Source of the DNA: Rhodovulum sp. P5
Lineage (GTDB): Bacteria > Pseudomonadota > Alphaproteobacteria > Rhodobacterales > Rhodobacteraceae
Direction: 5' to 3'
NCBI RefSeq assembly: GCF_002079305.1
Contig: NZ_CP015040.1
Location: forward strand, 1 to 64,000
Length of the DNA stretch: 64,000 bases
The translations under genes were made by a program, and so were the position numbers. The notes beneath the pieces were generated by a model that made no database searches, was not told the origin of the DNA, and saw nothing but the letters and a program-made list of their open reading frames with translations. Positions 19,190 to 57,372 of the stretch are shown piece after piece (the first letter of the stretch is position 1; every line of letters begins with the position of its first letter).

Positions 19190-19229
19190 GGCCCTGTACG
19201 CACGAAGGGGGTCAAAAACGGCAAGATTT
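19190..19229 (+). repeat. Left terminal inverted repeat of the Tn3-family element
   Basis: 40 bases, beginning GGCCCTGTACGCACGAAGGG and ending AAAACGGCAAGATTT. Reverse complement of 22910-22949 over its whole length. Confidence 0.9.
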
Positions 19230-19789
19230 CATGAAAGTGGTGTTGACCGCTTGATGCGGTCGATTGTTGCGACGCCGACGTTGAAATGGCGCGCAATGGC
19301 GCGGATGGACTGTCCCTCCTGAAGCATTGATCTGACTTGATCTTGCTGGTGGGTTGTGAGTTTGAACTTTCGTCCGAATTTCACGCCGCGTTTCTTGGCT
19401 GATACCCGGCCTTCTTCGGTTCGTTCATTGATGAGGTTCCTCTCCAATTCGGAAAGTCCAGCAAAAACAGTGAGTAAGAACTTTCCCATAGAGCTCGTGG
19501 TGTCGGCCCAGGGTTCGCGAAGTGATCTGAACGATGCCTCTGCGGCCTCTATCTTCTTGGTAATGACAAAGAGATCATGGGTGGATCGGGCAAGGCGATC
19601 CAGGCTTGTGACAAGCAGCGTATCGTCTGGCTGCAGTGTGCTGAGCATCTTTTCAAGTTGAGGGCGACGACGGTCAAACCCGGTCAGCTTCTCTTGGAAT
19701 ATCCTGTCACATCCCTCTGCCTGGAGGTGCTCGATCTGGCTTTCCAGGTTCTGTCCGATCGTGGAAACCCGCGCGTAGCCGATCAGCAT
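19229..19789 (-). CDS. tnpR: Serine site-specific recombinase / Tn3-type resolvase TnpR
   Basis: 186 aa. The N-terminal catalytic domain starts MLIGYARVSTIGQNLESQIE, with the nucleophile Ser in YARVS (residue 9). It continues through the family segments LVTSLDRLARSTHDLF and GLSELERNLINERT. The C-terminal Hin-type helix-turn-helix is GQSIRAIARHFNVGVATIDR. It resolves Tn3 cointegrates at the res site, which should lie in the 112-base gap on its 5' side. It is downstream of tnpA on the same strand, and its stop codon touches the left inverted repeat. Confidence 0.93.
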   Translation of the reverse strand: MLIGYARVSTIGQNLESQIEHLQAEGCDRIFQEKLTGFDRRRPQLEKMLSTLQPDDTLLVTSLDRLARSTHDLFVITKKIEAAEASFRSLREPWADTTSSMGKFLLTVFAGLSELERNLINERTEEGRVSAKKRGVKFGRKFKLTTHQQDQVRSMLQEGQSIRAIARHFNVGVATIDRIKRSTPLS

Positions 19790-19901
19790 GGTTTTGCACC
19801 TGTTTTTCGGCCTCCAATACGGAACGGAATTACGGATTCTGTAAGGTTTTGTTTTTGCGACCGGAAAAATTCGTTCCGGAATTTATAAGTTTCGGAACGC
19901 C
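19790..19901. promoter_or_regulatory. Probable res (resolution) site of the Tn3-family element
   Basis: AT-rich spacer between tnpA and tnpR with repeated GGAACGGAATT / ATTCGTTCCGGAATT / TTTCGGAACG blocks in both orientations. Resolvase dimers usually bind such partial inverted repeats next to their own gene. Exact subsites cannot be set by eye. Confidence 0.6.
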
Positions 19902-22832: not shown

Positions 22833-22909
22833 ACATATTCCAATTCTTCTAATTATCGGAATATACTTACGGAACACTCCTACTTGTCAACAGACAAAAC
22901 CAACCCCTA

Positions 22910-40582: not shown

Positions 40583-40972
40583 TCAGCCCCAAACCCGCGC
40601 CAACCCCAGCACGTCGAACGCGGCGTCGGCAGAGACGAGCGCCAACCCCTCCTGCCGCGCCACAACGGCGATCATCCGGTCGAACGGGTCGCGGTGATCC
40701 CAGTCCAGCAGCGCAGCCTCCAGCGCCGCGGCGGGCGACAGCGGGATCAGGTCGAACCCGTCGGCAAGCGCACGATCCACAAGCCCCAATGCATGGGGCG
40801 CCATTTCGGGCCATTTGCCCAGCCGCACCTTCTGGCCGATTTCGTAGAAAGACATGACGCTGACCGCCGCCCGCATGCTTGCCCCGATGCGGTCGCGGGC
40901 CGTCCCCGGCAGGCGGGGATCGTCGGTCAGGACCATGGCAAAGGCGTTGGTGTCAAGCAGCAGCGCCGTCAA
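40583..40972 (-). CDS. vapC: PIN-domain toxin, VapC family
   Basis: 129-aa PIN-domain ribonuclease of a type II toxin-antitoxin pair. It begins MTALLLDTNAFAMVL with the first acidic metal ligand (LLDTNA). A Glu lies in MSFYEIGQK, and the later acidic set is HRDPFDRMIAVVA and VSADAAF. The start overlaps the antitoxin stop by ATGA, the typical co-translation layout. It probably cleaves a specific tRNA or rRNA site when unbound. Confidence 0.88.
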   Translation of the reverse strand: MTALLLDTNAFAMVLTDDPRLPGTARDRIGASMRAAVSVMSFYEIGQKVRLGKWPEMAPHALGLVDRALADGFDLIPLSPAAALEAALLDWDHRDPFDRMIAVVARQEGLALVSADAAFDVLGLARVWG

Positions 40973-41199
40973 AGCGCGCCCCAGTCGCGCAACTCATCCT
41001 CTGACAGCGGCGCGAGGAAGGCCTCGGGCGGCGGGGCGACCTCTCCCTTCAGGCTGCCGATCCGCACGGCTGACGCGCGCACGGGCACAAGCTCTGCCGC
41101 CGGGCGCCCATGCCGGGTGATCACCACCCGCTCGCCCCGCGCCACCGCTTCAAGCAGCTTCGACAGGTTGGTCTTGGCTTCGTGCACGGAGGCCTGCAT
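40969..41199 (-). CDS. Antitoxin, Phd/YefM (VapB-like) family
   Basis: 76 aa with the Phd/YefM N-terminal DNA-binding fold MQASVHEAKTNLSKLLEAVA and HGRPAAELVPV, and a disordered C-terminal toxin-neutralising tail (APLSEDELRDWGAL). It precedes and overlaps the PIN toxin. The ATG at 41199 gives the family-standard start. Confidence 0.85.
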   Translation of the reverse strand: MQASVHEAKTNLSKLLEAVARGERVVITRHGRPAAELVPVRASAVRIGSLKGEVAPPPEAFLAPLSEDELRDWGAL

Positions 41200-41331
41200 G
41201 GGGCGACCCTTTTCTGACTTGGCTATAGTCTGGTCATATTTCAGGCGCGTTTCAAGCATCCCCGCCCCGGGACACCGGAAAAAAACGTGCGGCGCGAGAC
41301 CGCGCCCCACCGCCGGCCGCAAAAGGCGCCC

Positions 41332-42475: not shown

Positions 42476-43908
42476 TCAGCTTCCGCCGAAATGCAGGCTC
42501 TTGATCTCCTGATAGTCCTCGATCCCCGGCAACCCGCCTTCGCGACCGTTGCCGGACGCCTTGTAGCCGCCGAAGGGCGTGCCCCATCCCAGGCCGCCCC
42601 CATTCACATGCACCGCGCCCGCGCGCAGGCGTCGGGCCACGCGCTCTGCCCGGTCGGGGTCGCCGGTCTGGATATAGGCGGCAAGACCGTAGTCGGTCGC
42701 GTTGGCAATGCGGATCGCGTCGGCCTCATCCTCGGCGGGCAGGATCGAAAGGACCGGGCCGAAAATTTCCTGCCGGGCGATGGTCATGTCGTTGGTGACA
42801 TCGGCAAAGACCGTGGGCCGGGCATACCAGCCGCGCGCGCAGTCGGGCGGACGGCCCGGCCCGCCAGCCACCAGGCGCGCGCCCTCGGCCATGCCGGCCT
42901 CGATCAGCGCCTGCACGCGGTCCCACTGGATCCGGTCGTAAAGCGGGCCCAGATGGTCGCCCTCCTGTTTGGGGTCGCCGACCGTCGTCGCCTCGGCGGC
43001 GCTTTGCGCGATCTCGACCACCTCGTCATAGCAGGCGCGCTCGACGATCAGCCGGGTCGGTGCATCGCAGGACTGGCCGGTGTTGAGGAAACATTCGGCC
43101 ACGGCATAGCGCACCCTGTCCTCCAGGTCGGCGCCACAATCGGCAAAGACAAGGTTGGGCGACTTGCCGCCCAGTTCCAGCGTCACGCGCTTGACCGTGT
43201 CGGCGGCCGACTTCGTGACCGATATCCCGGCGCGGGTCGATCCGGTGAACGAAACCATGGCGAGTGCCGGGTGCCGCGCCAGCGCATCGCCCACCTCCGG
43301 CCCCGTGCCGAAGATCAGGGCGAAGGCGCCGGGGGGCACGCCCGCCTCGTGCAGGATTTCGGCATATATCAGGGCTGACAGCGGCGTGTATTCCGACGGT
43401 TTCAAGACGGCCGGGCAGCCCGTGGCAAGGGCCGGCAGCACCTTCAGCGCGATCTGGTTGACCGGCCAGTTCCACGGCGTGATCAGACCCGCCGGACCGA
43501 TCGGTTCGCGTGTCAGCGTGTCGCCATTGGGCAACTGCCAACGCTCTTCCTGCGCTTCCAGTGCCTCGATAAAGCCGTCCGCATGGCCGATGCCCGCCTC
43601 GGCCTGCATGTCGCGCGACATGGTGATCGGCGCGCCCATTTCGCGCGTCATCGCCTGGGCCAAGTCTTCCTTGCGCGCCGCGGTCAACTCGCGGATGCGG
43701 CGCAGCAGGGCAAGCCGGTCGGCCTTGCTCCAGAACCCGAACGCCTCGAAGGCGCGCGTGGCGGCCTCTACCGCGCGATCGACATCCCCGCGGTTCCAAG
43801 GGTGACGGTGCCGATTTCGCTGTCCTCGGCCGGGTCCGTGATCGGCATGGTGTCACGGCCCATCGGTTCGACCCACGCACCGTCAATGTAAAAGCGGTCG
43901 GCGTTCAT
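42476..43908 (-). CDS. Aldehyde dehydrogenase, probable DMSP-aldehyde dehydrogenase (frameshifted near its start)
   Basis: NAD(P)-dependent aldehyde dehydrogenase, 477 aa when joined. The N-terminus MNADRFYIDGAWVEPMGRDT is in one frame. After GTVTLGTAG the frame must shift (one G missing from the run at 43786-43789) to reach DVDRAVEAATRAFEAFGFWS and the rest. The NAD segment TPWNWPVNQIALKV, the catalytic Glu in LELGGKSPN and the nucleophile Cys in NTGQSCDAPTRL are present. It ends the same-strand run aminotransferase, TusA-like, decarboxylase, methyltransferase. In the bacterial methionine-methylation route to DMSP, the final step oxidises DMSP-aldehyde to DMSP, so that activity is inferred. 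Confidence 0.8.
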
Positions 43909-43997
43909 CGCCCCTCCCTCGTGTCTTGCGCCCCGCTCGGCACGCTGTGCCGAGGGTCGATCTGTTTTTGAAATCTCGTTTGCAGACAGGCCCCTGT

Positions 43998-44914
43998 CTA
44001 GATCGGGCATCCACGGATCGTGCAGACTTCGTGGAAGATCGCGGCCTCGCTGTCTGCATCGATCATCGCTTGCGCTTCGGTCGCCGAGATATGGCAGGTG
44101 CCGCCCGCATCGGAATAGAAGGCACAGGTGAAATCCTTGTCGAACCCGGTCCCGCCAAGGGACCGCTCCAGCGCCACGAAGAAGGAAATGTCGGTTCCGG
44201 CATGTTGCCGGACGATCTGCGCTTGCAGTTTCTCGGGCTTGTATCCGTTGGCCTCGAACAGGTCGAACAGCACCGGCACACCGACCCGGGCGCCGAAATT
44301 CAGGATCACCTCGGCCCCGGGCGCGCAGGAGCGCAGGCGCCGCAACAGCGCCTCGTTCAGCCCAAGGCCCACGGCGTTGAACGGGAAGTCGTCGAAATCG
44401 GTCCACGGATAATAATGCGCGATGTGGTCGTCGTCGCGCTCCTCCGCGCCGTCGCCCAGTTTCGTGCGGCTGGAGCGTCGGAAGGCATCGAACCTTTCAT
44501 CGCCCGGGCAGGCCACCTGCGGCAGGCACCCGATCACCGCATCGGCCTGCTCGACCTCGGCCAGCGCGTCCGGCGTATCGATCAGGCTGACGGCCCGTTG
44601 ATCGGGTGGAACCGGTGCGCCTGCGCGGGGGCAAGACTGCGCACATTGCGCTCGGCCAGATCGGCCATACGCGGGTCAAGATCGCTGCCCGAGACGCGCG
44701 CAGCCCCACACATCTGCAACAGAAAGGCCGCGTTCACCCCGGTGCCGATCCCGACCTCGTAGACACGCTTGCCCGACAACTCTGCCTTTTCAAGCGCCAT
44801 CTGGAAGGTCTGTGTCCACGGATCGCTCGGGTCGAAGGCGAAATCTGGCGAGTGCGGGGTCACGCCGGTTTCCGTCTCGCGGGAAAGGGTGTCGGTCGCA
44901 TCTGGATTGGTCAT
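43998..44914 (-). CDS. mmtN: Methionine S-methyltransferase MmtN (DMSP synthesis, first step; frameshifted)
   Basis: SAM-dependent methyltransferase, about 305 aa when joined. SAM motif I is VYEVGIGTGV (residues 51-60), with the acidic loop GSDLDPRMADLAERN (near 76-90). The second half closely follows the N-terminal methyltransferase domain of plant methionine S-methyltransferases, as remembered: VIGCLPQ versus VGCIPQ, NFGARVGVPVLFDLFEANGY versus NMGGRPGQGVCKRLFERRGF, and TDISFFVALE versus TDISALVEIE. Bacterial MmtN converts methionine to S-methylmethionine. The reading frame breaks after HPING: one G added in the run at 44594-44596 restores AVSLIDTPDALAEVEQADAV. The neighbours supply the decarboxylase, aminotransferase and aldehyde dehydrogenase of the pathway. 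It starts 52 bases after the decarboxylase. Confidence 0.8.
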
Positions 44915-44966
44915 GGGTCTTCCGTGGCAGGGGGGCAAGACAGCGCCGGGAGCGGCGCCGCCATCG

Positions 44967-46228
44967 TCAGTCAAGCAGCAGGACGGTTCGCGCCGCGCGC
45001 GCAAACAGTGATCGGACCGCATCGAGGCCGCATAGCCGCCGGCATTGATCAGGGCGATCACGTCGCCGTCGTCCGGGGCGGGCATCGGGTGGTCTTCGGC
45101 CCATTTGTCCAGCGCCTCGTTCACGTTGCCGACGATGGTAAAGCGCGCTGGCGGCGCATCGCGCGGCACCGCCGGCACCGGCTCGCAGGGCAGGTCGTAA
45201 AAGGCCGGCTCCATCGCCAGGTTGAACCCCGCGTCGAGCCCGAGAAACTCGACCTCTTTCCGGCGTTCGCGGTAGGTGACGCTGGCCAGCAGCACGCCAG
45301 CATCCTTGACCAGGAAATCGCCCGGCTCGACGGCAACGGTCAGCTTTCGCCCACCAAAGGCCGCGGCGATGACAGAGGCCCAGCGGGTCAGGTCAAGCGG
45401 GCGGTCCCCGGCGCGGTGCGGCACGCCCAGCCCGCCGCCGATATTCACCTCGGTCAGGTGCGGCAGCCGGTCGGTGAAGGCGCGGCTGGCCGTCAGAACG
45501 GCGGCGAACTGCTCCATCTCCCGGTCGAGATAGCCGCAGCCGGCATGGAAATGGATGCGTGCGATCTCCAGCCCGTGCTTTTCGGCGATCTCGATAGCCT
45601 CGGACAACCGGTCAAGATAGATGCCGAATTTCGTGGCATTGGCCCCGCTATATTGCAGCATCTCGCTGTCGCCATAGCCGATGCCCCGGTCGGGGTTGAT
45701 CCGTATTCCGACCTTGCGGCCGGGGCAAAGGCGCCCGTACCGCTCCAGCGCGGCGAGCGAGTCGAAGTTGATGGCGATCCCGTCGAAACGTGCCAAAGCC
45801 TCGATATCGGCGGGGCTAAGCGACGTGCCGGTGAACGAAATGTCCTCTTCCCGGAATCCGCAGGCCAGCGCGTGCAGCAATTCCTCGGGCGAACAGACAT
45901 CTGCCCCGCACAGTCCCCGGCCGGCAAGGTATGACAGCAATTGCGGCGTCCGGTTCGCCTTGATCGCGTAATGGATGCGGTGATCCAGCCCGGCCCCGTC
46001 AAGCGCCCTGTGCAACTGGCGCAGCTTTTCTGCCACCCGCGGGGCGCGAACCACATAGGCGGGCGTGCCGACCTTTCTGGCCAGCGCATCCAGATCGGCG
46101 GTGCCAAGGTGAAGGCGGCCGCGCCGAAAGGTCAGGTCGTCCCGCTGCCACCAGGGGGCCGTCTTCCCGGGATCTGTCGTATCCGGTTTCCTGCCGAGCG
46201 TCGGCGCCGCAACACCGGCCTCAGACAT
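44967..46228 (-). CDS. Fold-III PLP decarboxylase, probable S-methylmethionine decarboxylase (frameshifted at its end)
   Basis: About 420 aa, ornithine/diaminopimelate decarboxylase family. The PLP Lys is K90 in HYAIKAN, the phosphate-binding GGGLG is at 264-268, and EPGDFLVKDAG is at 301. The usual active-site Cys motif (C-E/D-S/G-x-D) of this family is replaced by VGNVNEALD (366-374), pointing to a different substrate. Near 44998 one base must be added to end the protein properly as ARTVLLLD; without it the frame reads through into the methyltransferase and looks like a fusion. In the bacterial mmtN pathway this enzyme makes DMSP-amine from S-methylmethionine. It overlaps the TusA-like gene by 8 bases. 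Confidence 0.75.
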
Positions 46229-46487
46229 GCCGGATTTCGGCGGCTGCCCCGGCCTGCGCTTTCGGCACCGCCACGCCGGACGTGTCTGCCGAATAGAGCA
46301 GCCTGACATCCGTGCTCTCGCCCGTCAGGCTGGCCGAGATGCGATCGGGCTCGCAGCAGGCGCCGTCGACGAGCACGTCAAGCGGCAGGCCGCAATCGCG
46401 CCGGCCCACAACCGCCTGTTTGATCCGCAGCACAGTCAGGGGTGCAGACAGCCCGCGGCAATCGATGAAGCTTGTCGGTTGGCTCAT
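46221..46487 (-). CDS. TusA/SirA-like small protein lacking the catalytic cysteine
   Basis: 88 aa. The start SFIDCRGLSAPLTVLRIKQA aligns with the TusA signature (D-x-R-G-L-x-C-P-x-P), but the sulfur-carrying Cys is Ala (residue 15) and the second Pro is Thr. The only Cys nearby is residue 10, and a Cys pair follows in VDGACCEPDRI. It therefore cannot work as a normal sulfur-transfer protein through CPxP. It lies inside the DMSP-type operon, between aminotransferase and decarboxylase, and overlaps the decarboxylase start. A binding, regulatory or chaperone role in the pathway is possible. I know of no described function. Confidence 0.65.
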   Translation of the reverse strand: MSQPTSFIDCRGLSAPLTVLRIKQAVVGRRDCGLPLDVLVDGACCEPDRISASLTGESTDVRLLYSADTSGVAVPKAQAGAAAEIRHV

Positions 46488-46556
46488 ATCGCGTCTCCTT
46501 TGCGTGTGGTGCGGCCCGTGCCGCCGTTCGGTCGTCTTCGGGGGTCCGCGCGCGGG

Positions 46557-47978
46557 CTAGACCTTTCCGGCCTTCAGGTCGGCTTCGGCCCGGCTCAGCG
46601 CATCGCCGAGAATGCTGACGATGCGATCGATATCCGCCCGGTCGATGATCAGCGGCGGCGACAGGATGCACAGGTTTTCATAGGGCCGGACCAAGAGCCC
46701 CGCCTCCTGGCAATAGGCATCGACGCGCGCGGCCAGCGCCATGTTGGCGGCATTCGGCCCCGGCTCTGCGCCCGTCCAGCATTCGACACAGGCCATCAGG
46801 TGATCGCCGCGCACGGTGTAGACGATGTCGGAGCCGCGCAAGGCGCGCAGACGGTCGATGAAATAGGGGCCGACATCGCGCACATGGCCACAGATGTCCT
46901 CCTGTTCCATGATCTCGATATTGGCCAGTGCCACGGCACAGGCGACGGGATGGCCCGAATAGGTGAACCCGTTGGAAAAGACCGGTTTGTCGGCGGGCGC
47001 AGACTCGGCCATCGACGCCGCGATCCGGTCGGAAATCAGCACCGCGCCAAGCGGCTGATAGCCCGAGGTCAGCCCCTTGGCGGTGATCAGCATGTCGGGT
47101 TGAATCCCGAAGCGCACGTCCGACGCGAAGAAATGGCCAAGCCGGCCAAAGCCCGTCACGACCTCGTCGGAAATATACAGAATGCCATGCTTGCGGCAGA
47201 GATCGAAGGTCGCCTTCTGATAACCTTCGGGCGGGGTCAGCACGCCCCCCGAGGCAAGGATCGGTTCGGCGATGAAACAGGCGATGTTCTCGGCCCCGAT
47301 CCGGGCGATCTCGGCCTCCATCTCGTCGAGCAACGCACCCAGCTTTTCGGGCGCGGACAGGGGCGACCGGTCCGGGTCGTAGCCCGGGCTCGACAGGTGG
47401 TGAACGAAATCGCTTTCATACTGAAACAGCGTCCGGTCGGCCGATTTGCCGGACAGCGACTGCGTCAGATAGGTGCCGCCGTGATAGGCATTGATGCGGG
47501 ACAGCACATGCCGTTTTTCAGGCTGCCCGAGGGCCGCGAAATGATAATGGGCAATCCGGATGGCCGACTCCACCGCCGTGGACCCGCAGGTGGTGAAATG
47601 CACCCGGTTCAGATCGCCCGGCGCAAGCGTGGCAAGACGTTCGGCCAGCCGTGCCGCCGGTTCGCTGGAGACATCCCCGAAGGGCGTGTAATAGGCCATC
47701 TGCCGGGCCTGGTCGGCCATCGCCTCGGCCAGTTCCTCGCGCCCGTAGCCCAGTGTCATGCACCACATGCCGCCAATGGCATCAAGGTAAGTTTTGCCGT
47801 CGCTGTCTTTGACCCGCACACCCTTGGCCGAACTGATCACCAGTGCGTGCTGGTCCCCCAGACTGCTGAGATCGGCCCATGGATGCAGGACATGGCGCGC
47901 ATCCGCCTGCGGGGCCGGGCGCGCCGCCGCACCCTTCAGGTTGACGGGTTCAGGGGCTGTTTCAACCACTAACGCCAT
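46557..47978 (-). CDS. Class III aminotransferase, probable DMSP-amine aminotransferase
   Basis: 473-aa fold-I PLP enzyme of the omega-aminotransferase group. Characteristic parts are GGMWCMTLGYGREELAEAM, FTTCGSTAVESAIRIAHYH (phosphate contacts), SDEVVTGFGRLG (cofactor Asp, near 271) and LITAKGLTSGY, with the PLP Lys at about 301. First gene of the five-gene same-strand run. Omega-aminotransferases act on terminal amines with pyruvate or similar acceptors, fitting deamination of DMSP-amine to the aldehyde. Specificity is inferred from cluster content only. Confidence 0.85.
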   Translation of the reverse strand: MALVVETAPEPVNLKGAAARPAPQADARHVLHPWADLSSLGDQHALVISSAKGVRVKDSDGKTYLDAIGGMWCMTLGYGREELAEAMADQARQMAYYTPFGDVSSEPAARLAERLATLAPGDLNRVHFTTCGSTAVESAIRIAHYHFAALGQPEKRHVLSRINAYHGGTYLTQSLSGKSADRTLFQYESDFVHHLSSPGYDPDRSPLSAPEKLGALLDEMEAEIARIGAENIACFIAEPILASGGVLTPPEGYQKATFDLCRKHGILYISDEVVTGFGRLGHFFASDVRFGIQPDMLITAKGLTSGYQPLGAVLISDRIAASMAESAPADKPVFSNGFTYSGHPVACAVALANIEIMEQEDICGHVRDVGPYFIDRLRALRGSDIVYTVRGDHLMACVECWTGAEPGPNAANMALAARVDAYCQEAGLLVRPYENLCILSPPLIIDRADIDRIVSILGDALSRAEADLKAGKV

Positions 47979-48558
47979 TTAGCTCATGCCTTCCGGTTTC
48001 GCGCCGCGCGCGATTTCCTGATTTTCCGGCCTCCCCGAGGCCTGCCATGATCAATGCGACCGCAAAGGCGCCTGACGCGCCGAGTGTGATACGACCGGCG
48101 GGCCCGGGGGCTCTCCACCTGAAATCACGAGGCCGCTGTCGAGGAGTCCGCCGCGCGTGCCTTTCGGCAACTTCGCCTGGGCGATCTCCTCGAAGTTCTC
48201 GTCCTCACCATACAGGCTCGCCCGCCTGACTGAAGCTGCGGCCCCAAAGATTTCTCATCTGCGGCAGCACAAACCACAAAATCGGCACATTTGCCCAATT
48301 TGCGAGCGGGATGCGAGGATTTCAGGCCGGTCCGGGGTTCGTCTTCGGCAGCCGCGCAGCGCAAAGCGCTCTACAACGATCAGCAGCGGTCGGACAACGG
48401 CCCGGAAAGCCCCGGCAGTCCGGGAAATTGTTCTTCGCGTTCCAACAGGGCCGCTGGCATGCCACGGATTGGCGTCGGGCCTGCTTACGCCTTCATGATC
48501 ACGACCCCGATGGCGATGAGCGCCGCCGAGGTCCACCGCCACCGGCCGTGAACCCGGC
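47979..48558. other. Degenerate intergenic region upstream of the DMSP-type operon
   Basis: No intact gene. It should hold the promoter of the aminotransferase-led operon close to 47979-48060. The remaining sequence gives only short interrupted frames and leads into a LysR remnant, so it looks like decayed coding DNA. Confidence 0.45.
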
Positions 48559-48738
48559 CCTCTTCCGAAGCAAATCCAGATCGCACCCGACATCCTGGTC
48601 CGCGATGACCTGACCGCGGGGCGGCTTGTAGCCCCATTCGGTTTCGTGCCGTCGGGCATGTCCTATGTCGCGCTACGGCCGGCGGGGCGAAACGCGGATG
48701 CGGAAACGTTTGTCGACTGGCTCTGCAAGGCCGACTGA
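48559..48738 (+). pseudogene. C-terminal remnant of a LysR (GcvA-like) regulator
   Basis: The plus-strand frame ending at the TGA 48736-48738 reads IQIAPDILVRDDLTAGRLVA, PFGFVPSGMSYVALRPAGRN and FVDWLCKAD. That is the end of a LysR-family effector-binding domain (GRLV-P-F ... DWL). No N-terminal DNA-binding part is found upstream, only broken frames, so the gene is a fragment. It may be the lost regulator of the divergent DMSP-type operon. Confidence 0.6.
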
Positions 48739-48789
48739 CAGAAGCGGCCGCCTTGGCGCCTCCGTTCGGGTGAAGGCCCCCTTCCCCGC

Positions 48790-49641
48790 TCAGCCGTCGA
48801 TGTCGAGGCCGAGATCCAGCACCGGGGCCGAATGGGTCAGCGCGCCGGCCGAGATATAATCCACCCCCGTCGCGGCGACTTCGGCGATCCGCGCCAGCCG
48901 CATGTTGCCGGAAGCTTCGGTGACCATCCGCCCGTTCACGCGCTTCACCGCCTCGGCCAACTGTTCCGTCGACATGTTGTCCAGCAACACCACATCGGCC
49001 CCGCCCAGCCGCAAGACGGTGTCCAGTTGGTCGAGCGTATCGACCTCCACCTCGATCTTCATCATGTGGGACGCCGCGGCGCGGGCGGCGGGCAGCACGC
49101 GCTCCAGACCGCCGCCCGCGGCGATGTGGTTGTCCTTGATCAGGATCGCGTCGGACAGATCGAACCGGTGGTTCGCGCCCCCGCCATGCAGCACCGCCTG
49201 CTTTTCGACCGTTCGCAGGCCCGGCGTGGTCTTGCGCGAACAGGTGATACGCGTTTGCGTGCCCTTGGTCTCGGCCACGAAACCCGCCGTCATCGTGGCA
49301 ATGCCCGAAAGCCGCCCGGCAAAGTTCAGCGCCACCCGCTCTGCCGCTAGGATCGCCGCGGTATCGCCGGAAATGGTCATCAATGTCTCGCCCGCGGCGC
49401 AATCCGCCCCGTCGGCCCCCGTTATCCCGATCTTCAGGCCGGGATCGATCAGGCGAAAGGCCAGCGCCGCGATGCGCAAGCCCGACACGCGGCCGGGCGT
49501 GCGGGCACGCAGATGCACCGCACAGGTGGCCGCGGCGGGAATGACGGCGCGGCTGGTCACATCGCCCTGCCGGCCGAGATCTTCCAGCAGCGCGGCGCGC
49601 ACAAGGGGTTCCAGAACCAGATCGGGCAGGGGCGGGATCAT
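48790..49641 (-). CDS. nadC: Nicotinate-nucleotide diphosphorylase (carboxylating)
   Basis: 283-aa quinolinate phosphoribosyltransferase, third step of de novo NAD synthesis. Family segments are LLEDLGRQGDVTSRAVIPAA near the start, ALNFAGRLSGIATMT, TCSRKTTPGLRTVEKQAVLH and IKDNHIAAGGG. The C-terminal VVLLDNMSTEQLAEAV and TEASGNMRL are also typical. The ATG at 49641 overlaps the nadB stop codon. Last gene of nadABC. Confidence 0.93.
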   Translation of the reverse strand: MIPPLPDLVLEPLVRAALLEDLGRQGDVTSRAVIPAAATCAVHLRARTPGRVSGLRIAALAFRLIDPGLKIGITGADGADCAAGETLMTISGDTAAILAAERVALNFAGRLSGIATMTAGFVAETKGTQTRITCSRKTTPGLRTVEKQAVLHGGGANHRFDLSDAILIKDNHIAAGGGLERVLPAARAAASHMMKIEVEVDTLDQLDTVLRLGGADVVLLDNMSTEQLAEAVKRVNGRMVTEASGNMRLARIAEVAATGVDYISAGALTHSAPVLDLGLDIDG

Positions 49642-51217
49642 GCGACACTCCTCGGGCATGGCGAGGGCCAGGCGCGGGCCTCGGCAAGGGTCAGCTGTCT
49701 GCGCAGGGCCTGTTTCGGATCCGTTTCGGGGAAATCGCGGCGGAAATGCCCGCCGCGGGACTCTTCGCGCCGAAGCGCCGCCACGGTGATCAGGGTTGCG
49801 GCCGCCGCCATGTTCTGCATCCGGTCGCAATCGGGATGCTGCGCCGCAAGGCGGGCAATCTGCGCCAGCGCATGGCAAAGCCCCCGGCCTCGCGAAGAAC
49901 GCCGACATGGTCGGTCATCACCCGGCGCAGGGCCTGCACGGTTTCGGGGTCCGGCGCCGGCGGGCCGCCGGCCTGCCAATGCAGGGCAATCTGCGGCGCG
50001 TCGGCGGCCATGCACGCCCCAAGCTCTGCCGCCAGATCGGCCGCGGCGGCGCGGCCCATCGCCAGCGCCTCCAGCAACCCGTTCGACGCCAGACGGTTCG
50101 CCCCGTGCAACCCCGTGGCCGCGGCCTCGCCACAGACCCACAGGCCGGGAAGCGAGCAGCGCCCGCGCAAATCCGTGGCCACCCCGCCCATATGGTAATG
50201 CGCCGCCGGGGCAACCGGGATCGGCTGGGTCACCGGGTCGACCCCTGCCCTGTGACAGCCCGCATAAACGGCGGGAAAGTCATCGCGGATGCGGGCGCCC
50301 AGAGCGCTGCGCGTGTCCAGCAGCGGGCGGTTGCCCGCCTGGACCTGGGCAAAGACCGCACGGGCCACCACGTCGCGCGGGGCAAGCTCGGCATCGGGAT
50401 GCGCGTCACGCATGAACCGGCGGCCGGCCCGGTCGATCAGGGTTGCCCCGGCGCCGCGCAGGGCCTCGGTCGCCAACGGCGCATATTCTCCGCCGATATC
50501 GAGTGCGGTCGGATGGAACTGCACGAATTCCGCATCGGCGACCACGGCACCGGCACGGGCAGCCATGCCCAATGCCTCGCCCCGGATCGCGGGCGGGTTG
50601 GTCGTGACCGCGAAAAGACCCGCCGCCCCGCCGCCGGCCAGCAGAACCGCAGGACAGGCGATCAGAACGGGCTGCACCGGGGCGTCTTCGGCACGGTTGA
50701 CCCAGACACCGGCCACACGGCCGCCGACCTTGTGCAGGCGGAGGACGCGAACGCCTTCCACCACCTGTACCGAGGGCGCGGCGCGCACGGCCGCAACCAG
50801 CCCTGCCATGACTTCACGCCCGGACTGATCGCCCTTGACCTTGACGATCCGCGCCGTGCTGTGGGCCGCTTCCAGCCCCAGCAGATACGCCCCGCTCCCA
50901 TCCCGGTCGAAGGGGATGCCCAGCCGGCCCAGATCCTCGATCCGCGCGCGGGCGCTGGCGGTGATCCGGTGCGCCACCTCGGGATCGACCGTGCCGGCCC
51001 CGGCCCGAACCGTATCCGCGGCATGGGCTTCGGGGCTGTCATCGGCGGCCATCGCAGCGGCGATCCCGCCCTGTGCCCAGGCCGAACTGCAGCCTTCCCC
51101 CAGCGGTGCCGGGGACAGCACCAGAACCGGGCGCGGCGCAAGCGCCAGTGCGGCCGAAAGCGCGGCAATCCCCGCCCCCACGATCACCACGCGGGGCGTT
51201 TCGACCGCCGCGGTCAT
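49638..51217 (-). CDS. nadB: L-aspartate oxidase (frameshifted)
   Basis: FAD enzyme that oxidises aspartate to iminoaspartate for NadA; about 526 aa when joined. The FAD site VVIVGAGIAALSAALAL is at the N-terminus, with SSAWAQGGIAAAM and QFHPTALDIGGEYAPLATEA following and YHMGGVATDLRGRCSLPGLW near 350. After DHVGVLREAGG the frame is lost. Adding one G to the run at 49881-49885 restores LCHALAQIARLAAQH and the NadB C-terminus ESRGGHFRRDFPETD, which overlaps nadC. It starts in the nadA stop codon (ATGA). Confidence 0.88.
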
Positions 51218-52257
51218 TTCGCCTTGCCGATGTCGATCATTCGTTCGACGGCGCGGCGGGCCGGCGCGACCAGTTCGGGCGCAACCGTCACTTCGCCGCG
51301 CAGGTCATGCAGGCAGGCGAGGATCTTTTCCAGCGTGATCTTCTGCATGTGGGGGCACAGGTTGCAGGGCTTGGTCAGGGCCACCTCGGGCAGCTCTGCC
51401 GCCACATTTGCCGCCATCGAGCATTCGGTGATCAAAAGCGCGCTGTCGGGCCGGCGGCTGCGCAACCAGTCGATCATCGCGGCGGTCGAGCCCGCGAAAT
51501 CGGCCTCGTCCACCACTTCGGGCGGGCATTCGGGATGGGCAATCAGCGTCGCGCCGGGGTTGGCGGCACGCCATGCGCGCAACTCTTCTGGGGTAAAGCG
51601 TTCATGCACCTCGCACGACCCACCGGCCGGGATGACCCGCTTGGAGCTCTGCCGGGCGATATTGGCGGCAAGATAGCGGTCGGGCGTCATGATGACGGTG
51701 TCGCCCGGCATCGCCTCGACCACCTGCAGCGCGTTGGCCGAGGTACAGCACACATCCGACGCCGCCTTGATCGCCGCGGGGGTGTTGACATAGCACACCA
51801 CCGCCGCGCCGGGATGCGCCGCGCGCAGCGCCGCAATCTCGTCAAGGCTGGCCGCCTCGGCCAGAGAGCAGCCGGCCGTCGCATCGGGGATCAGCACCGT
51901 CTTGTCGGGGTTCAGAACCTTGGAGGTTTCGGCCATGAAATGCACCCCGGCCTGCACGATCACCTCAGCCTCGGTGCACGTTGCCGCCAGCGCCAGTTGC
52001 AGACTGTCGCCAACAATATCGGAAACGCCATGATAGATTTCGGGCGGCATATAGCTGTGGCCCAGGATCACCGCGTTCCTTTCGACCTTCAGCCGGTCAA
52101 TCGCCACGATATAGGGGGCATGACGCGCCCAGTCTTCCGGCGGGATGACATGGGCCACACGGGCATAACGGTCGCGCGTGGCCTCGAACGCTTCGGCAGA
52201 GGGCCGAAGGTCATAGGCATCGGTCAGCATCCCCGAAGTGAGGCTGGTGTCGAACAT
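51214..52257 (-). CDS. nadA: Quinolinate synthase A
   Basis: 347-aa 4Fe-4S enzyme that condenses iminoaspartate and dihydroxyacetone phosphate to quinolinate. Typical segments are VILGHSYMPPEIYHGVSDIV, VIVQAGVHFMAETSKVLNPD, KTVLIPDATAGCSLAEA (cluster Cys), IAHPECPPEVVDEADFAGST (second Cys) and KPCNLCPHMQKITLEKI (third Cys region). First gene of nadABC; each gene overlaps the next by ATGA, so the three are translationally coupled. Confidence 0.94.
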   Translation of the reverse strand: MFDTSLTSGMLTDAYDLRPSAEAFEATRDRYARVAHVIPPEDWARHAPYIVAIDRLKVERNAVILGHSYMPPEIYHGVSDIVGDSLQLALAATCTEAEVIVQAGVHFMAETSKVLNPDKTVLIPDATAGCSLAEAASLDEIAALRAAHPGAAVVCYVNTPAAIKAASDVCCTSANALQVVEAMPGDTVIMTPDRYLAANIARQSSKRVIPAGGSCEVHERFTPEELRAWRAANPGATLIAHPECPPEVVDEADFAGSTAAMIDWLRSRRPDSALLITECSMAANVAAELPEVALTKPCNLCPHMQKITLEKILACLHDLRGEVTVAPELVAPARRAVERMIDIGKAK

Positions 52258-53490: not shown

Positions 53491-53506
53491 ATTGCCAATT
53501 GGCAAT
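53491..53506. promoter_or_regulatory. parS-like palindrome, parB side
   Basis: ATTGCCAATTGGCAAT, a perfect 16-bp palindrome touching the parB stop codon. The bases before it (CTTTCCGCACT) match those before the copy at 57407 (CTTTCCGCGCT), so a conserved segment of almost 30 bases is shared. Likely the centromere bound by ParB. Confidence 0.7.
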
Positions 53507-54504
53507 CAGCCTTTCGCCCGGCTTTCCAGAAACTGTTCAAACGCGGCCCGCAGCGCCCGGTCGGACAGGTTGCGGTCGAATTCAAGCTGGATTCGGTTGC
53601 CCTTGCGCCGCATCTGCACACCGCTTTCCCCCGGCGCGCGGCGAAAGACCCGCTCCGCCGCCTTGCGCTCTTTCGGGGGCTGCGCCGCCGCCTTCAGCCG
53701 TGCAACGACCTTCGGCGCGGGGATCGCGGCCCCCTGCCCTGCCCGCGCCGCCGCCTGTTCCTGCGCCAGACGGTCGGCTTCGGCGATGATCGCCGCCCGG
53801 CCCTCTTCCGTGGCCATCAGCGGTTTAAGCTGCCGGGCATGCAGTTCCTTCACCTCCCGGATCGAGGCAAAGGCTGCCACGAGCTCGGGTTCCAGCCGCG
53901 CAAGGCCCAGATAGCGCGACAGCCATGCGGGCGATACCTGCAGCCGTTCCGCCATCAGCTTTTGCTGGCCGCCATAGAACCGCTCCAGCGCGCCGGCATA
54001 ATCCCGCGCGCGTTCGAGATCCGAGATATCTTCGCGGTCCCGGTTCTCGATATCGGCGAGGCGGAACGCCTCTTCATCGGTCAGCTCCCGTTCCTCGATC
54101 AGGTAGCGGAACTGGGGATAGTGGTTGGCGCGAAGCCAGGTGATCGCGAAATGCCGCCGGGCCCCGCAGATCACCTCGAACTCAGGGCCTTCCCCTTCAT
54201 GGGCCGGGCGCAGCCGCCGGACGACGGCGGGAAATTCCTGCTGGCCCTGGGCGATGATCCCGTCGATCAGGTCGCGGCAGTTGGCCTCGGTCAGCAGGTC
54301 ATAGGCGCGGTTGTGCCCCTCCCACATCACGCAGGTCGCCGGGTCGACCAGTCGCAGCACCTTTTCCTGCCGCCCGCCCCCGGCCTGTTCGGCCAGCGCG
54401 GACGAACGTTTGAGAAACCGCGCCGGCCCCTTGTCCCGGGCGGGGGCGTCCGCCTCGATCCCTTTCAGCACATCGTCGAAAATGGCGTCATGGCGTTTGC
54501 TCAC
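53506..54504 (-). CDS. parB: ParB/RepB-family plasmid partition protein
   Basis: 332-aa centromere-binding protein. The ParB N-terminal domain contains the CTP-binding GARRHFAITWLR and LADIENRDREDISDLERARD. The central helix-turn-helix is KLMAERLQVSPAWLSRYLGL, and a basic C-terminal region ends LEFDRNLSDRALRAAFEQFL. The start is GTG at 54504, overlapping the parA stop as GTGA; the longer upstream frame lies inside parA. It works with ParA and the two flanking palindromes to segregate the replicon. Confidence 0.9.
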   Translation of the reverse strand: MSKRHDAIFDDVLKGIEADAPARDKGPARFLKRSSALAEQAGGGRQEKVLRLVDPATCVMWEGHNRAYDLLTEANCRDLIDGIIAQGQQEFPAVVRRLRPAHEGEGPEFEVICGARRHFAITWLRANHYPQFRYLIEERELTDEEAFRLADIENRDREDISDLERARDYAGALERFYGGQQKLMAERLQVSPAWLSRYLGLARLEPELVAAFASIREVKELHARQLKPLMATEEGRAAIIAEADRLAQEQAAARAGQGAAIPAPKVVARLKAAAQPPKERKAAERVFRRAPGESGVQMRRKGNRIQLEFDRNLSDRALRAAFEQFLESRAKG

Positions 54505-55703
54505 AGGATGCCCTCCTTTCTCAGTGCCGCGTGATGGCTGGGCCATGTCTTGCGGATCAGCGTCTCGATCTCGCGGCCCACCGCATCCAGATAGGCGCGG
54601 CAGCGCTTGTGCGTGTCGGTGCGGGTGGCCGGCCCGGTCAGTTCGTAAACGCTCATCAAATTGGCCGACGCGTTGTCGATTTCCGCGGAATCCTTCAGCA
54701 CCGCCTGAAGGATGTCTTGCGGGAACACCGCCTCCATCACCCGCTTGATGGCCTGATGCGCGCCCTTCTGGTCGTTCATCTTGGTCGCAAGGATCTTGAC
54801 GAAGTGATACCCCCGCGCGCCCCCATGTTCGGCCAGTTCGTTCAACGTCGCGCCCATCATCTTGAGGAAATGCGCGGTCGATCCGAAATCGATGTTGTTC
54901 GGCGGCGCCGGGATGATCAGCGCATTGGCCGCCCGCAGCACCGACAGGGAAATCATCCCCAGCGCCGGCGGCGGGTCCAGCAGGATCACGTCGAACTGGT
55001 CGGCGATGGTGGCGATGCCGTCGCGCAGCCGGTCCAGCACGAAGGTCTGTTCGCGCATCATCCGCGCGGCGAATTCGTATTCCGCATCGTACAGCCCAAG
55101 GTTGGACGGGATCAGCGCGATCCCCGGCCAATAGGTGGCGCGCAACGCGTAATGCAGGGTCTGCGGCCCACCGTGGCGGAAGAAGGGGTAAAGCGTGTCC
55201 TCGTCTTCATCCACATCCACGTCGGGGTTCAGACCGAAGACCGAGGTGGTCGACCCCTGGCTGTCGCAATCGATGACGCAGACGCGATAGCCCTTCAGCG
55301 CCAGGTATTGCGCCAGGTGGATCACCACCGTCGACTTGCCCACGCCGCCCTTGAAGTTCTGCACCGCCAGCACCGTGGCCGGGTCCCCGTCCCCGCGGCG
55401 CGGCAAGGTTCCGAAAACCTCGCGCATGCGGTTGACCTCGGCCAGGCTATAGCCAAGCCGCCGCCCGGTATCGGGGTCCTTTTCCGGTTGCGGCAGACGG
55501 CCGTCGTTTTCCGCATCGCGGATCGCCTTTTCCGTGCGCCCCACCATCTCGGCGGCGGAGCGGACGTTGAACCGCAAATCCAGCCGCTTTTCGCGGCCCG
55601 GCGCAAAGACCCGTTCGCGAAGCCGGGTGATCACCGTATCCGCGCGCGATGCCAGCGCATCGATCTCGTCAAGGGTGACGGGAAAATCCGTGTGCTCCGT
55701 CAT
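54501..55703 (-). CDS. parA: ParA-family plasmid partition ATPase
   Basis: About 400 aa. An N-terminal helix-turn-helix-type extension (RSAAEMVGRTEKAIRDAEND) shows it is a large, autoregulating ParA (type Ia). The deviant Walker A is NFKGGVGKSTVVIHLAQYLA, with DCDSQGSTTSVFGL and ILLDPPPALGM (Walker B) following. The ATG at 55703 follows GAGGCAGG; in-frame ATGs at 55733 and 55757 are alternatives. The same strand carries parB. A divergent rep gene and iterons lie on its 5' side, the arrangement of RepA/RepB-type replicons in Rhodobacterales. Confidence 0.9.
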   Translation of the reverse strand: MTEHTDFPVTLDEIDALASRADTVITRLRERVFAPGREKRLDLRFNVRSAAEMVGRTEKAIRDAENDGRLPQPEKDPDTGRRLGYSLAEVNRMREVFGTLPRRGDGDPATVLAVQNFKGGVGKSTVVIHLAQYLALKGYRVCVIDCDSQGSTTSVFGLNPDVDVDEDEDTLYPFFRHGGPQTLHYALRATYWPGIALIPSNLGLYDAEYEFAARMMREQTFVLDRLRDGIATIADQFDVILLDPPPALGMISLSVLRAANALIIPAPPNNIDFGSTAHFLKMMGATLNELAEHGGARGYHFVKILATKMNDQKGAHQAIKRVMEAVFPQDILQAVLKDSAEIDNASANLMSVYELTGPATRTDTHKRCRAYLDAVGREIETLIRKTWPSHHAALRKEGIL

Positions 55704-56340: not shown

Positions 56341-57372
56341 ATGGCGAAACCCGCCAGAGAATACCGTACGGTCGACGCGCGGCCAAGCCGCGAGAGCCTT
56401 GTGAAACCGGGCGAGCTGGTGGACCTGATCGAGGTCACGCCACTGACGCTGAACGACCGGCGGATCTATAACCAGCTTCTGGAAAATGCGTGGGACGCCA
56501 TCGACAAGCCCGTTGTCCATGTCATCTCGAAATCGGCGCTGCGGGGGTCGCACAATTCCAACGACCGAGTCGGTGAATCGATCGAGCGTCTGATGGCCGC
56601 CATCGTCAAGGTCGAGGCCGTGTGGGATGGCAAGCCCGCCGTCGAACGGGTGCAGCTTCTGGGGGGCAACCTTGAAATGACGCGGGGCGACGGGCTGCTG
56701 GAATATGAAATCCCGCCGCGGCTGCGCAAGATTATCTCCAACTCCACCGTCTTTGCCCGGCTGCAACGGGAGGTGATGTTCGCGCTCAGTTCGAAATACG
56801 CCCTGACGCTGTACGAGATGGTGCAAAAGCGCGGGAACCTGCGCTGGCGCTCGTCCGAGAAATTCACGGTAGAGGCGATCCGCGGCGTGCTGGGCGTGCC
56901 CAAGGGCAAGCTCAGTTCATGGTCGAACCTGCGGATGCGGGCGCTGGAACCCGCGGCGGCCGAGGTGTCGGCGCTGTCGGACTACATGGTCGAGATCGTG
57001 CCGATCAAGACCGGGCGCAGCGTGACCCATGTGGAACTGCGCTGGTGGCGCAAGGATGGGGAGGCGACGGGCAAGGCGGAACGTGCGCTGCAATTCGCCT
57101 CGACCGGGCGGCGGGCGCGGGCGGACGGCACGGCCGAGGAAATCGTGGGGCAGGGCGCCGCCCCGCGCCCCCGGCCCGCATGGCTTGACCGGCAGGGGGC
57201 GGCGCTGCGCAGCGAAACCTATGAAACCGCGCGGCTGCGTTTTCCGGGATACGACATCTATTTCGTCGAAGGCGAATGGCGCGCATGGGCCGCCGGAAAG
57301 GAACCGCCCGCCGATCCAGACCGGGCCTTCCTTGCCTTCTTCCGGAAATATGCCGAGGCCAACCCGACCTAG
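56341..57372 (+). CDS. rep: Plasmid replication initiator (Rep_3/RepB type)
   Basis: 343 aa with the two winged-helix units of Rep_3-superfamily initiators. The first is LTLNDRRIYNQLLENAWDAI ... IISNSTVFARLQREVMFALS. The second is KYALTLYEMVQKRGNLRWRS ... GVLGVPKGKLSSWSNLRMRA, followed by VEIVPIKTGRSVTHVELRWW. The C-terminal 100 residues are an extra, less conserved domain. It binds the iterons upstream to start replication. Divergent from parAB, the layout of Rhodobacterales RepB-type replicons. Confidence 0.85.
   Translation: MAKPAREYRTVDARPSRESLVKPGELVDLIEVTPLTLNDRRIYNQLLENAWDAIDKPVVHVISKSALRGSHNSNDRVGESIERLMAAIVKVEAVWDGKPAVERVQLLGGNLEMTRGDGLLEYEIPPRLRKIISNSTVFARLQREVMFALSSKYALTLYEMVQKRGNLRWRSSEKFTVEAIRGVLGVPKGKLSSWSNLRMRALEPAAAEVSALSDYMVEIVPIKTGRSVTHVELRWWRKDGEATGKAERALQFASTGRRARADGTAEEIVGQGAAPRPRPAWLDRQGAALRSETYETARLRFPGYDIYFVEGEWRAWAAGKEPPADPDRAFLAFFRKYAEANPT

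What the first reader, a model, noticed from the sequence alone, without database searches (positions are those of the whole stretch)
42476..47978. Complete methionine-methylation DMSP biosynthesis cluster
Five same-strand genes encode a class III aminotransferase, a TusA-like protein, a fold-III PLP decarboxylase, a methyltransferase and an aldehyde dehydrogenase. The methyltransferase matches the N-terminal domain of plant methionine S-methyltransferase block by block (CLPQ, NFGARVG, TDISFFVALE), as does bacterial MmtN. The other three enzymes are exactly those needed for S-methylmethionine to DMSP-amine, DMSP-aldehyde and DMSP. The set appears to lie on a mobile-type replicon, which would allow transfer of DMSP production.
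Basis: partly seen in the sequence, partly recalled or inferred. Interest (0 to 1): 0.92.

Follow-up and report, generated by a model that had tools for sequence, protein, structure and literature searches.

The report
DMSP gene cluster with overlooked partner
A plasmid of a purple-bacterium relative carries the known gene set for making the marine sulfur compound DMSP from methionine, partly broken in the sequence as deposited, and with it a tiny, undescribed protein that travels with this pathway's first enzyme in almost every genome where we looked.

Summary
The five same-strand genes are real. The methyltransferase is a Group I MmtN (197 of 292 aligned residues identical to the solved Roseovarius indicus enzyme; tree placement beside Rhodobacter). 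Decarboxylase, class III aminotransferase and aldehyde dehydrogenase fit the published methionine-methylation route, so the cluster is a new member of a known kind. "Complete" is too strong: as deposited, three of five genes (decarboxylase C-terminus, mmtN, aldehyde dehydrogenase) have broken frames, probably sequence error on this plasmid, though decay is not excluded. The replicon is a 151-kb Rep_3 plasmid without a conjugation coupling protein. New is the small TusA-like gene: its family has lost the TusA catalytic cysteine (0 of 96), was found in 44 of 45 MmtN loci of both known cluster types, and overlaps the decarboxylase gene by 8 bases in 13, and is fused to it in 5, of the 18 loci that have that enzyme. 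It was not found in two clusters with an unrelated SET-domain methyltransferase. Of 390 genomes of the order, only the two with MmtN (one is the window's own) have it. It looks like a dedicated MmtN-pathway partner; no paper found here mentions it. Its biochemical role is inferred.

The parts
46557..47978 (-). class III aminotransferase (predicted DMSP-amine aminotransferase), intact
   Evidence: Pfam PF00202 272.8 bits; 85-86% identical to the Rhodobacter mmtN-cluster enzyme; 63% to the aminotransferase of the SET-type cluster of Eleftheria
46221..46487 (-). TusA-like small protein (88 aa) without the TusA catalytic cysteine; intact
   Evidence: family found in 44 of 45 MmtN loci; 0 of 96 family members have Cys at the TusA catalytic column
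46221..46228 (-). 8-base stop/start overlap (ATGnnTGA) between the TusA-like gene and the decarboxylase gene
   Evidence: sequence; same overlap in all 13 unfused loci of this cluster type, the window included (12; L102); annotated so in R. lusitanum
44960..46228 (-). fold-III PLP decarboxylase (predicted S-methylmethionine decarboxylase); last ~10 residues out of frame in this sequence (low end approximate)
   Evidence: PF02784 + PF00278; 80% to L013 over residues 23-408 of 418
43998..44914 (-). mmtN (methionine S-methyltransferase), read in two frames that switch near 44.6 kb
   Evidence: pieces P0001 and P0002 hit 7vvv; genome search gives two pieces, 44591-44914 and 44001-44636
42476..43908 (-). 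aldehyde dehydrogenase (predicted DMSP-aldehyde dehydrogenase); N-terminal part in another frame (upper end read by eye)
   Evidence: PF00171 positions 27-460 at 42497-43795; 88% to Rhodobacter sp. TJ_12 over its residues 60-494
56341..57372 (+). Rep_3 plasmid replication initiator of the carrying replicon (context)
   Evidence: PF21205, PF01051; the stretch 53.8-57.4 kb matches a plasmid rep/par region at 80.6%

Best explanation
This is a plasmid-borne methionine-methylation DMSP cluster of the kind that PMC9135737 calls S. mobaraensis-like, with no NRPS recognised among the ORFs around it. MmtN S-methylates methionine with SAM; the fold-III PLP decarboxylase makes DMSP-amine; the class III aminotransferase makes DMSP-aldehyde; the aldehyde dehydrogenase makes DMSP. 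Enzyme identities rest on homology; activity is inferred. The fifth gene encodes a TusA-like protein that has lost the sulfur-carrier cysteine and is kept with MmtN in both published cluster types. The most likely role (inferred) is a small accessory subunit of the MmtN step that docks onto MmtN and the next enzyme, where it raises MmtN's substrate affinity or hands over S-methylmethionine. As deposited, the window's own copy would not make intact MmtN or aldehyde dehydrogenase. I think sequence error on this plasmid is the likelier reason.
For: MmtN: 197 of 292 aligned residues identical to R. indicus MmtN. GxGxG is present. Asp69, Ser101, Leu102, Cys121, Arg132 and Tyr160 are kept (roles from PMC9135737). 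Tree. Pathway: enzyme classes as in S. mobaraensis and B. thailandensis (passages). dN/dS is 0.085-0.170 for all six aligned gene pieces against Rhodobacter TJ_12. TusA-like partner: 44 of 45 MmtN loci; 2 of 390 order genomes have it and the same 2 have MmtN. Among the 18 loci with the decarboxylase, 5 are gene fusions and 13 have the 8-base overlap. The cluster type changes at least twice on the MmtN tree while the TusA-like gene stays. None is found in 3 loci of 2 SET-type clusters, whose homologous decarboxylase is unfused. A search of 5.8 billion proteins gave 98 family members, the window's own included; those with a name are called hypothetical or uncharacterized. Purified MmtN assayed alone has KM 6.2 mM (SAM) and 15.3 mM (Met) (PMC9135737 section 6), which leaves room for a missing partner.
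Against: MmtN alone is active in vitro, so the partner is not essential for the reaction. BurB also has millimolar KM values (1.8 mM SAM, 16.6 mM Met), so a high KM need not mean a missing subunit. 33 of the 44 positive loci (32 fetched loci and the window) supplied the profile's own rows; 11 of the 12 others hit, but several of those are near-copies, and 10 of the 45 loci are Thalassospira. In the 27 loci of the other type no such decarboxylase is found in the fetched flanks, so the fusion partner is not constant. Only 2 SET-type records were examined. The window aldehyde dehydrogenase is only 40% identical to that of the Eleftheria cluster, passes no NCBIfam cut-off among the 25 of 41 families shown, and a close relative stands in place in only 2 of the 17 other loci of its type, so its role is the least certain. 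Met-facing residues differ: Glu127 is Cys, Glu250 is Asp. dN/dS against the other two relatives reaches 0.262 (TusA-like, L011), with dS saturated for one piece. The frame breaks may mean that the cluster is dead in this strain.
Confidence: 0.8

Rival explanations
1. The cluster is a decaying pseudogene set: the strain acquired it on the plasmid and is losing it, so little or no DMSP is made.
For: Three of five genes are frame-broken within 5.5 kb, whereas all 12 class III aminotransferase matches of the genome span nearly the whole family and so do 7 of 11 other Aldedh matches. 0 of 15 same-genus genomes have MmtN.
Against: Other C2 genes are broken in the same way, including nadB, whose only other match in the genome is a 33% paralogue. 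A frame model gave 12 candidate breaks in 151 kb of C2 and 11 in 260 kb of C1; by my reading only one or two of the C1 ones are real, one in a conserved Tex-like gene, as sequence error would also give. dN/dS of 0.085-0.170 against TJ_12 shows selection over most of the time since divergence, but cannot date a recent loss.
Confidence: 0.3
2. The TusA-like protein is a subunit or regulatory domain of the S-methylmethionine decarboxylase only, and has nothing to do with MmtN.
For: Fused to it in 5 and overlapping it in 13 of 18 loci. Recalled, no call: TusA itself docks onto a PLP enzyme, the desulfurase IscS.
Against: It is also kept in 26 of 27 loci where that decarboxylase was not found, upstream of mmtN on the same strand, and was not found beside the homologous decarboxylase of two SET-type clusters.
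Confidence: 0.25
3. The TusA-like protein is a real sulfur carrier that uses its conserved Cys10 instead of the lost cysteine, for example to recycle sulfur or guard a thiol.
For: Cys10 is present in 95 of 96 family members (one gap) and Cys44 in 86 of 96.
Against: The route as published needs no sulfur transfer; the CPxP motif is absent in 96 of 96.
Confidence: 0.12
4. The methyltransferase makes S-methylmethionine for a methionine cycle or another sulfonium product, not DMSP.
For: Some MmtN/MMT groups lack downstream genes, and some clusters are thought to use DMSP as an intermediate (PMC9135737).
Against: Decarboxylase, aminotransferase and dehydrogenase stand in the same order as in two Rhodobacter.
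Confidence: 0.07

Closest known systems
Group I MmtN clusters of the S. mobaraensis-like type (PMC9135737)
   Same: all four enzyme classes; MmtN over 50% identical to a Group I enzyme (67% to R. indicus)
   Different: no NRPS recognised around it; plasmid-borne; frame-broken as deposited; aldehyde dehydrogenase close in sequence only to two Rhodobacter clusters. The S. mobaraensis genes themselves were not compared
Group I MmtN clusters of the Novosphingobium BW1 type
   Same: MmtN and the TusA-like gene
   Different: 27 loci here have Aminotran_1_2, mostly with 2-hydroxyacid dehydrogenase and class II aldolase, and no such decarboxylase in the fetched flanks
BurB/BurI/BurD/BurE-type clusters (SET-domain methyltransferase; examined here in Eleftheria terrae and Sphingomonas paeninsulae)
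   Same: homologous decarboxylase (TJ_12 enzyme 49% to Eleftheria) and, in Eleftheria, aminotransferase (window 63%)
   Different: unrelated methyltransferase; no TusA-like gene or domain found; aldehyde dehydrogenase only 40%
TusA/SirA sulfurtransferase family (PF01206)
   Same: b-a-b-a-b order in the model; the motif around D-x-x-G-L and LR..KA aligns
   Different: catalytic Cys and CPxP lost; below the Pfam cut-off. Not filed as a member

Membership tests
MmtN Group I | more than 50% identity to characterised Group I enzymes (PMC9135737) | tested here: met
   67 of 91 and 130 of 201 residues identical to R. indicus MmtN
MmtN Group I | GxGxG and SAM-binding Asp69, Ser101, Leu102, Cys121; Met-binding Arg132 (said to be in all) | tested here: met
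MmtN Group I (usual, not defining) | Glu or Asp at 127 and 250 (Met contacts; single Ala variants at 127 and 250 keep over 50% activity) | tested here: not met
   250 is Asp, but 127 is Cys. 6 of 42 parsed locus sequences also lack an acid at 127: C 3, S 2, T 1
MmtN Group I | methionine S-methylation activity | not testable with these tools
   needs an assay
working mmtN gene as deposited | one intact open reading frame | tested here: not met
   two frames
S. mobaraensis-like DMSP cluster | MmtN + fold-III decarboxylase + class III aminotransferase + aldehyde dehydrogenase together | tested here: met
   as gene content, broken frames allowed
S. mobaraensis-like DMSP cluster | linked NRPS gene (sub-group) | tested here: inconclusive
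   none recognised by eye among the ORFs (38-52 kb); no family search for it
TusA (PF01206) | Pfam score over the curated cut-off | tested here: not met
   window 20.7 against 28.6 bits; 8 of 33 family members match at E<=0.1
TusA (PF01206) | catalytic Cys in CPxP | tested here: not met
   0 of 96 rows
TusA (PF01206) | TusA fold | tested here: inconclusive
mobile (self-transmissible) replicon | plasmid replication and partition genes | tested here: met
   Rep_3 at 56341-57372; ParB-type HTH in the ORF 53506-55131
mobile (self-transmissible) replicon | conjugation coupling protein on the same contig | tested here: not met
   PF02534: 3 matches, all on C1. Relaxase not tested

The most novel reading that the evidence does not exclude
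A TusA-derived protein that has lost its sulfur-carrier cysteine is an undescribed, dedicated subunit of the MmtN step in bacterial DMSP synthesis. It binds MmtN and the next enzyme (to which it is fused in actinobacteria and Nitrospirillum), and the millimolar substrate KM values reported for MmtN reflect assays made without it.
Probability: 0.35. Interest if true: 0.68.

Novelty: new member of a known kind. Interest (0 to 1): 0.48.

Why it matters
MmtN is called a robust reporter of DMSP synthesis (PMC9135737), and its purified form has substrate constants (6.2 mM SAM, 15.3 mM Met) that look too poor for a cell (my judgement). A small gene that was found with MmtN in 44 of 45 loci, in both published cluster types, but not with the unrelated SET-domain enzyme in the two clusters examined, offers an explanation that one co-expression experiment can test. 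It could also serve as a second marker for Group I MmtN clusters, since every named family member seen is annotated hypothetical or uncharacterized. The plasmid location and the absence of MmtN from 15 congeners add a case of patchy spread.

Tried and rejected
Other methyltransferase families: rejected, because both pieces hit only MmtN in the PDB at E<=0.001. Chance TusA-like ORF: rejected by conservation and co-occurrence. C2 as a chromosome fragment: suspected after no repC and no ParB_N match on C2; dropped when a Rep_3 initiator and partition genes appeared. First decarboxylase query: my script used a wrong reading frame for the SDC query, so its SDC column is void; redone with an intact orthologue. 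The mechanical frame-break scan has false positives from natural gene overlaps, and of the three breaks in the cluster it caught only the mmtN one, so it also misses; one search was read by eye to sort it. One search printed 9 of the 12 C2 candidates (left out: the mmtN one and the two of nadB/nadC) and all 11 of C1. TusA alignment: a motif filter kept 13 of 30 loci (the genome's own TusA was not among them), so it is small. The order-wide searches scored only part of their first-look candidates per genome (up to 14 for A2, 5 for A1), so a weak extra copy could be missed. Contig-length matching between the two protein lists: 29 of 97 TusA-like rows share a longest-contig length with the 119 MmtN rows typed in; weak, not relied on. 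tblastn of the window's TusA-like protein in plasmids found nothing at E<=0.01, although R. lusitanum carries a distant one. Rows dropped: P0219 and P0220 (weak tail) were left out of A3. L046, the one negative MmtN locus, is a MAG contig in which mmtN is matched only from residue 69 and overlaps a partial aminotransferase match; it is counted as a miss. Sources disagree on S. mobaraensis: PMC9135737 lists it with MmtN, while passages of PMC7496086 and PMC12542666 treat its methyltransferase as a BurB homologue, 35%; I could not check its genome. Literature: searches for at least two of mmtN, decarboxylase, TusA (75 papers, 20 listed, no listed mmtN paper holds TusA), TusA + dimethylsulfoniopropionate (4 papers, titles and abstract starts seen, none about MmtN clusters), MmtN + sulfurtransferase (0), S-methylmethionine + TusA (1, selenium in Methanococcus), TusA family + decarboxylase + fusion (0). 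PMC9135737 has no 'TusA' or 'sulfurtransferase' in its main text; its supplements and figures were not seen.


Full report
What is there. The window is the first 64 kb of contig C2 (151,483 bp) of a 4.47-Mb, five-contig genome. The best-named NadA relative is Rhodovulum strictum (84%), so the host is probably a Rhodovulum or close kin (inference). On the minus strand lie a class III aminotransferase (46557-47978), a TusA-like gene (46221-46487), a fold-III PLP decarboxylase (from 46228), mmtN (44914 to 43998) and an aldehyde dehydrogenase (about 43908 to 42476). The coordinates of the finding are right.

The methyltransferase is MmtN. Its two pieces hit one PDB sequence, R. indicus MmtN (7vvv/7vvw/7vvx), at E 7.7e-42 and 1.4e-86, with 197 of 292 aligned residues identical. 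The GxGxG motif, Asp69, Ser101, Leu102, Cys121 and Arg132 are kept; Glu250 is Asp and Glu127 is Cys. The paper that gives these roles (PMC9135737; abstract, introduction, parts 2 and 3 of the Results, section 6 and passages read) reports Asp as the alternative at both sites. Position 127 is more variable in my set: D 26, E 10, C 3, S 2, T 1 of 42 parsed of 43 loci. In a tree of 44 C-terminal parts, all MmtN, the window groups with R. aestuarii and Rhodobacter sp. TJ_12 (97/90).

The pathway. PMC12542666 (passages) states that MSMT, SMMDC, DMSPAAT and DMSPADH of S. mobaraensis, and BurB/I/D/E of Burkholderia thailandensis, run methionine to S-methylmethionine, DMSP-amine, DMSP-aldehyde and DMSP. 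The window's classes correspond. In PMC7496086 (passages) loss of the transaminase or the dehydrogenase only reduced the end product, so housekeeping enzymes may stand in for them; loss of methyltransferase or decarboxylase abolished the main products. The original reconstitution and the original mmtN paper are not held; I rely on their citation. Sources disagree on whether the S. mobaraensis methyltransferase is MmtN or a BurB homologue. The decarboxylase class resembles diaminopimelate decarboxylases (on the orthologue L013) but scores below the lysA cut-off (217.4 against 297.9 bits), as a sister function would. The aldehyde dehydrogenase is the least certain member: 40% to the Eleftheria enzyme, below the cut-off of each NCBIfam family shown (25 of 41), with close relatives in place in only two other loci of the type.

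Intactness. Three of five genes are frame-broken as deposited (observation check). A frame model found 12 candidates in 151 kb of C2 and 11 in 260 kb of C1; in the cluster it caught only the mmtN break. Reading translations, I judge as single proteins split in two, on C2, a gamma-glutamyltransferase, a long repeat protein, a selenium-binding-protein-like gene and a xanthine-dehydrogenase-like gene; nadB joins them. On C1 only a Tex-like gene is clear. The nadB search found, besides the C2 gene itself, only a 33% paralogue. Enrichment on C2 fits a less accurate plasmid sequence; decay is not excluded. dN/dS is 0.085-0.170 for all six aligned pieces against TJ_12, with no clear difference between intact and broken genes; against two other relatives it ranges up to 0.262, with dS saturated for one piece. 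This shows long-standing selection but cannot date a recent loss.

Distribution. MmtN is in 1 of 61 genomes, the window's own (0 of 15 same-genus), and 2 of 390 of the order. In 72,556 plasmid records one holds it at E<=1e-10, Rhizobium lusitanum p_4 (records of the window's own genome may be left out). C2 has a Rep_3 initiator and partition genes but no T4SS coupling protein and no repC; a Tn3-family transposase lies at 19902-22877. 'Plasmid-borne and patchy' is right; 'mobile' is only partly shown.

The TusA-like protein. I fetched 42 MmtN loci, and with R. lusitanum, the window and G397 have 45 (10 are Thalassospira). Three-seed tblastn (E<=0.05) found the small gene in 43 of the first 44; a profile found it in 44 of 45 (33 of these supplied the profile, and 11 of the 12 outside it hit, several of them near-copies). 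The miss, L046, is a MAG contig with a truncated mmtN match. The 45 loci split into two types: 18 with the fold-III decarboxylase and class III aminotransferase, and 27 with Aminotran_1_2, nearly always with 2-hydroxyacid dehydrogenase (26) and mostly class II aldolase (24) (families). PMC9135737 likewise separates S. mobaraensis-like and BW1-like clusters. The TusA-like gene is in both, and the type changes at least twice on the MmtN tree. In the 18, it overlaps the decarboxylase by the same 8 bases (ATGnnTGA) in 13 and is fused to its N-terminus in 5: Nitrospirillum, Saccharothrix, two Actinacidiphila, Nocardiopsis. In 26 of the 27 it lies upstream of mmtN on the same strand.

A discriminating comparison. 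If the protein served only the decarboxylase, it should also accompany that enzyme where another methyltransferase makes S-methylmethionine. Among plasmid records the decarboxylase occurs in three at E<=1e-40: R. lusitanum (with MmtN and the TusA-like gene), Eleftheria terrae and Sphingomonas paeninsulae. The last two have a SET-domain methyltransferase; neither shows a TusA-like gene or domain in the three loci fetched, and their decarboxylases are 403 and 406 aa by annotation. The order-wide co-occurrence (same 2 of 390) agrees. A 5.8-billion-protein search gave 98 family members, the named ones hypothetical or uncharacterized; that search cannot see fused forms, for length. So the protein follows MmtN, not the decarboxylase, on two counter-examples.

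What it is. Pfam TusA matches 8 of 33 members weakly and the window's below cut-off. A profile comparison with 13 TusA sequences gives 84.9% probability over 38 columns; the profile against PDB sequences gives a UPF0033/TusA-type protein first, but only at E 0.11. AlphaFold gives b-a-b-a-b at pLDDT 76.8 (73.4 with fewer sequences). The catalytic Cys column has 0 Cys in 96, and CPxP is absent; Cys10 is kept in 95 of 96, Cys44 in 86. I read it as a TusA-derived protein that cannot relay sulfur in the usual way. The proposed role, accessory subunit or hand-over factor of the MmtN step, is inference. It is encouraged by the millimolar KM values of MmtN assayed alone and weakened by similar values for BurB, for which no such partner was seen in two related clusters.

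Verdict. The cluster is a new member of a known kind, probably functional in nature but not as deposited. The conserved partner gives the finding most of its interest.

Noticed in passing
L015-L034, L036-L038, L044, L046, L050, L051 (27 loci of the BW1 type): No relative of the fold-III decarboxylase (E<=1e-25) in the fetched flanks of mmtN (up to 9 kb, less in L020, L031, L036); instead Aminotran_1_2 in 27, 2-hydroxyacid dehydrogenase in 26 and class II aldolase in 24. S-methylmethionine may be transaminated and reduced rather than decarboxylated there.
   Followed up: partly
window about 44.5 kb (MmtN residue 127 of R. indicus numbering): The Met/SAM contact Glu127 is Cys in the window, R. 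aestuarii, TJ_12 and Agrobacterium vitis, Ser in two and Thr in one locus.
   Followed up: partly
window 48485-52257 (minus strand): nadC, nadB, nadA on a Rep_3 plasmid; the nadA search and the nadB search found no other true copy in the genome, and nadB is frame-broken near 49.9 kb. Same genes on a plasmid of Cereibacter azotoformans; a similar stretch on one of Paracoccus versutus.
   Followed up: partly
G000:C2 83.7-85.5, 85.9-99.3, 104.8-106.2, 147.5-149.5 kb: Other frame-broken genes on the same plasmid, one resembling a selenium-binding/methanethiol-oxidase protein (identified by eye).
   Followed up: partly
window 40583-41322 (minus strand): PIN toxin and Phd/YefM antitoxin pair beside the cluster.
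   Followed up: no
window 19229-22877 (minus strand): Resolvase and Tn3-family transposase.
   Followed up: no
L142 7471-9209 (Sphingomonas paeninsulae plasmid): SET-domain methyltransferase gene overlapping the decarboxylase gene by 4 bases among signal-transduction genes: a possible stand-alone BurB/BurI-like pair outside the published Burkholderia setting.
   Followed up: no
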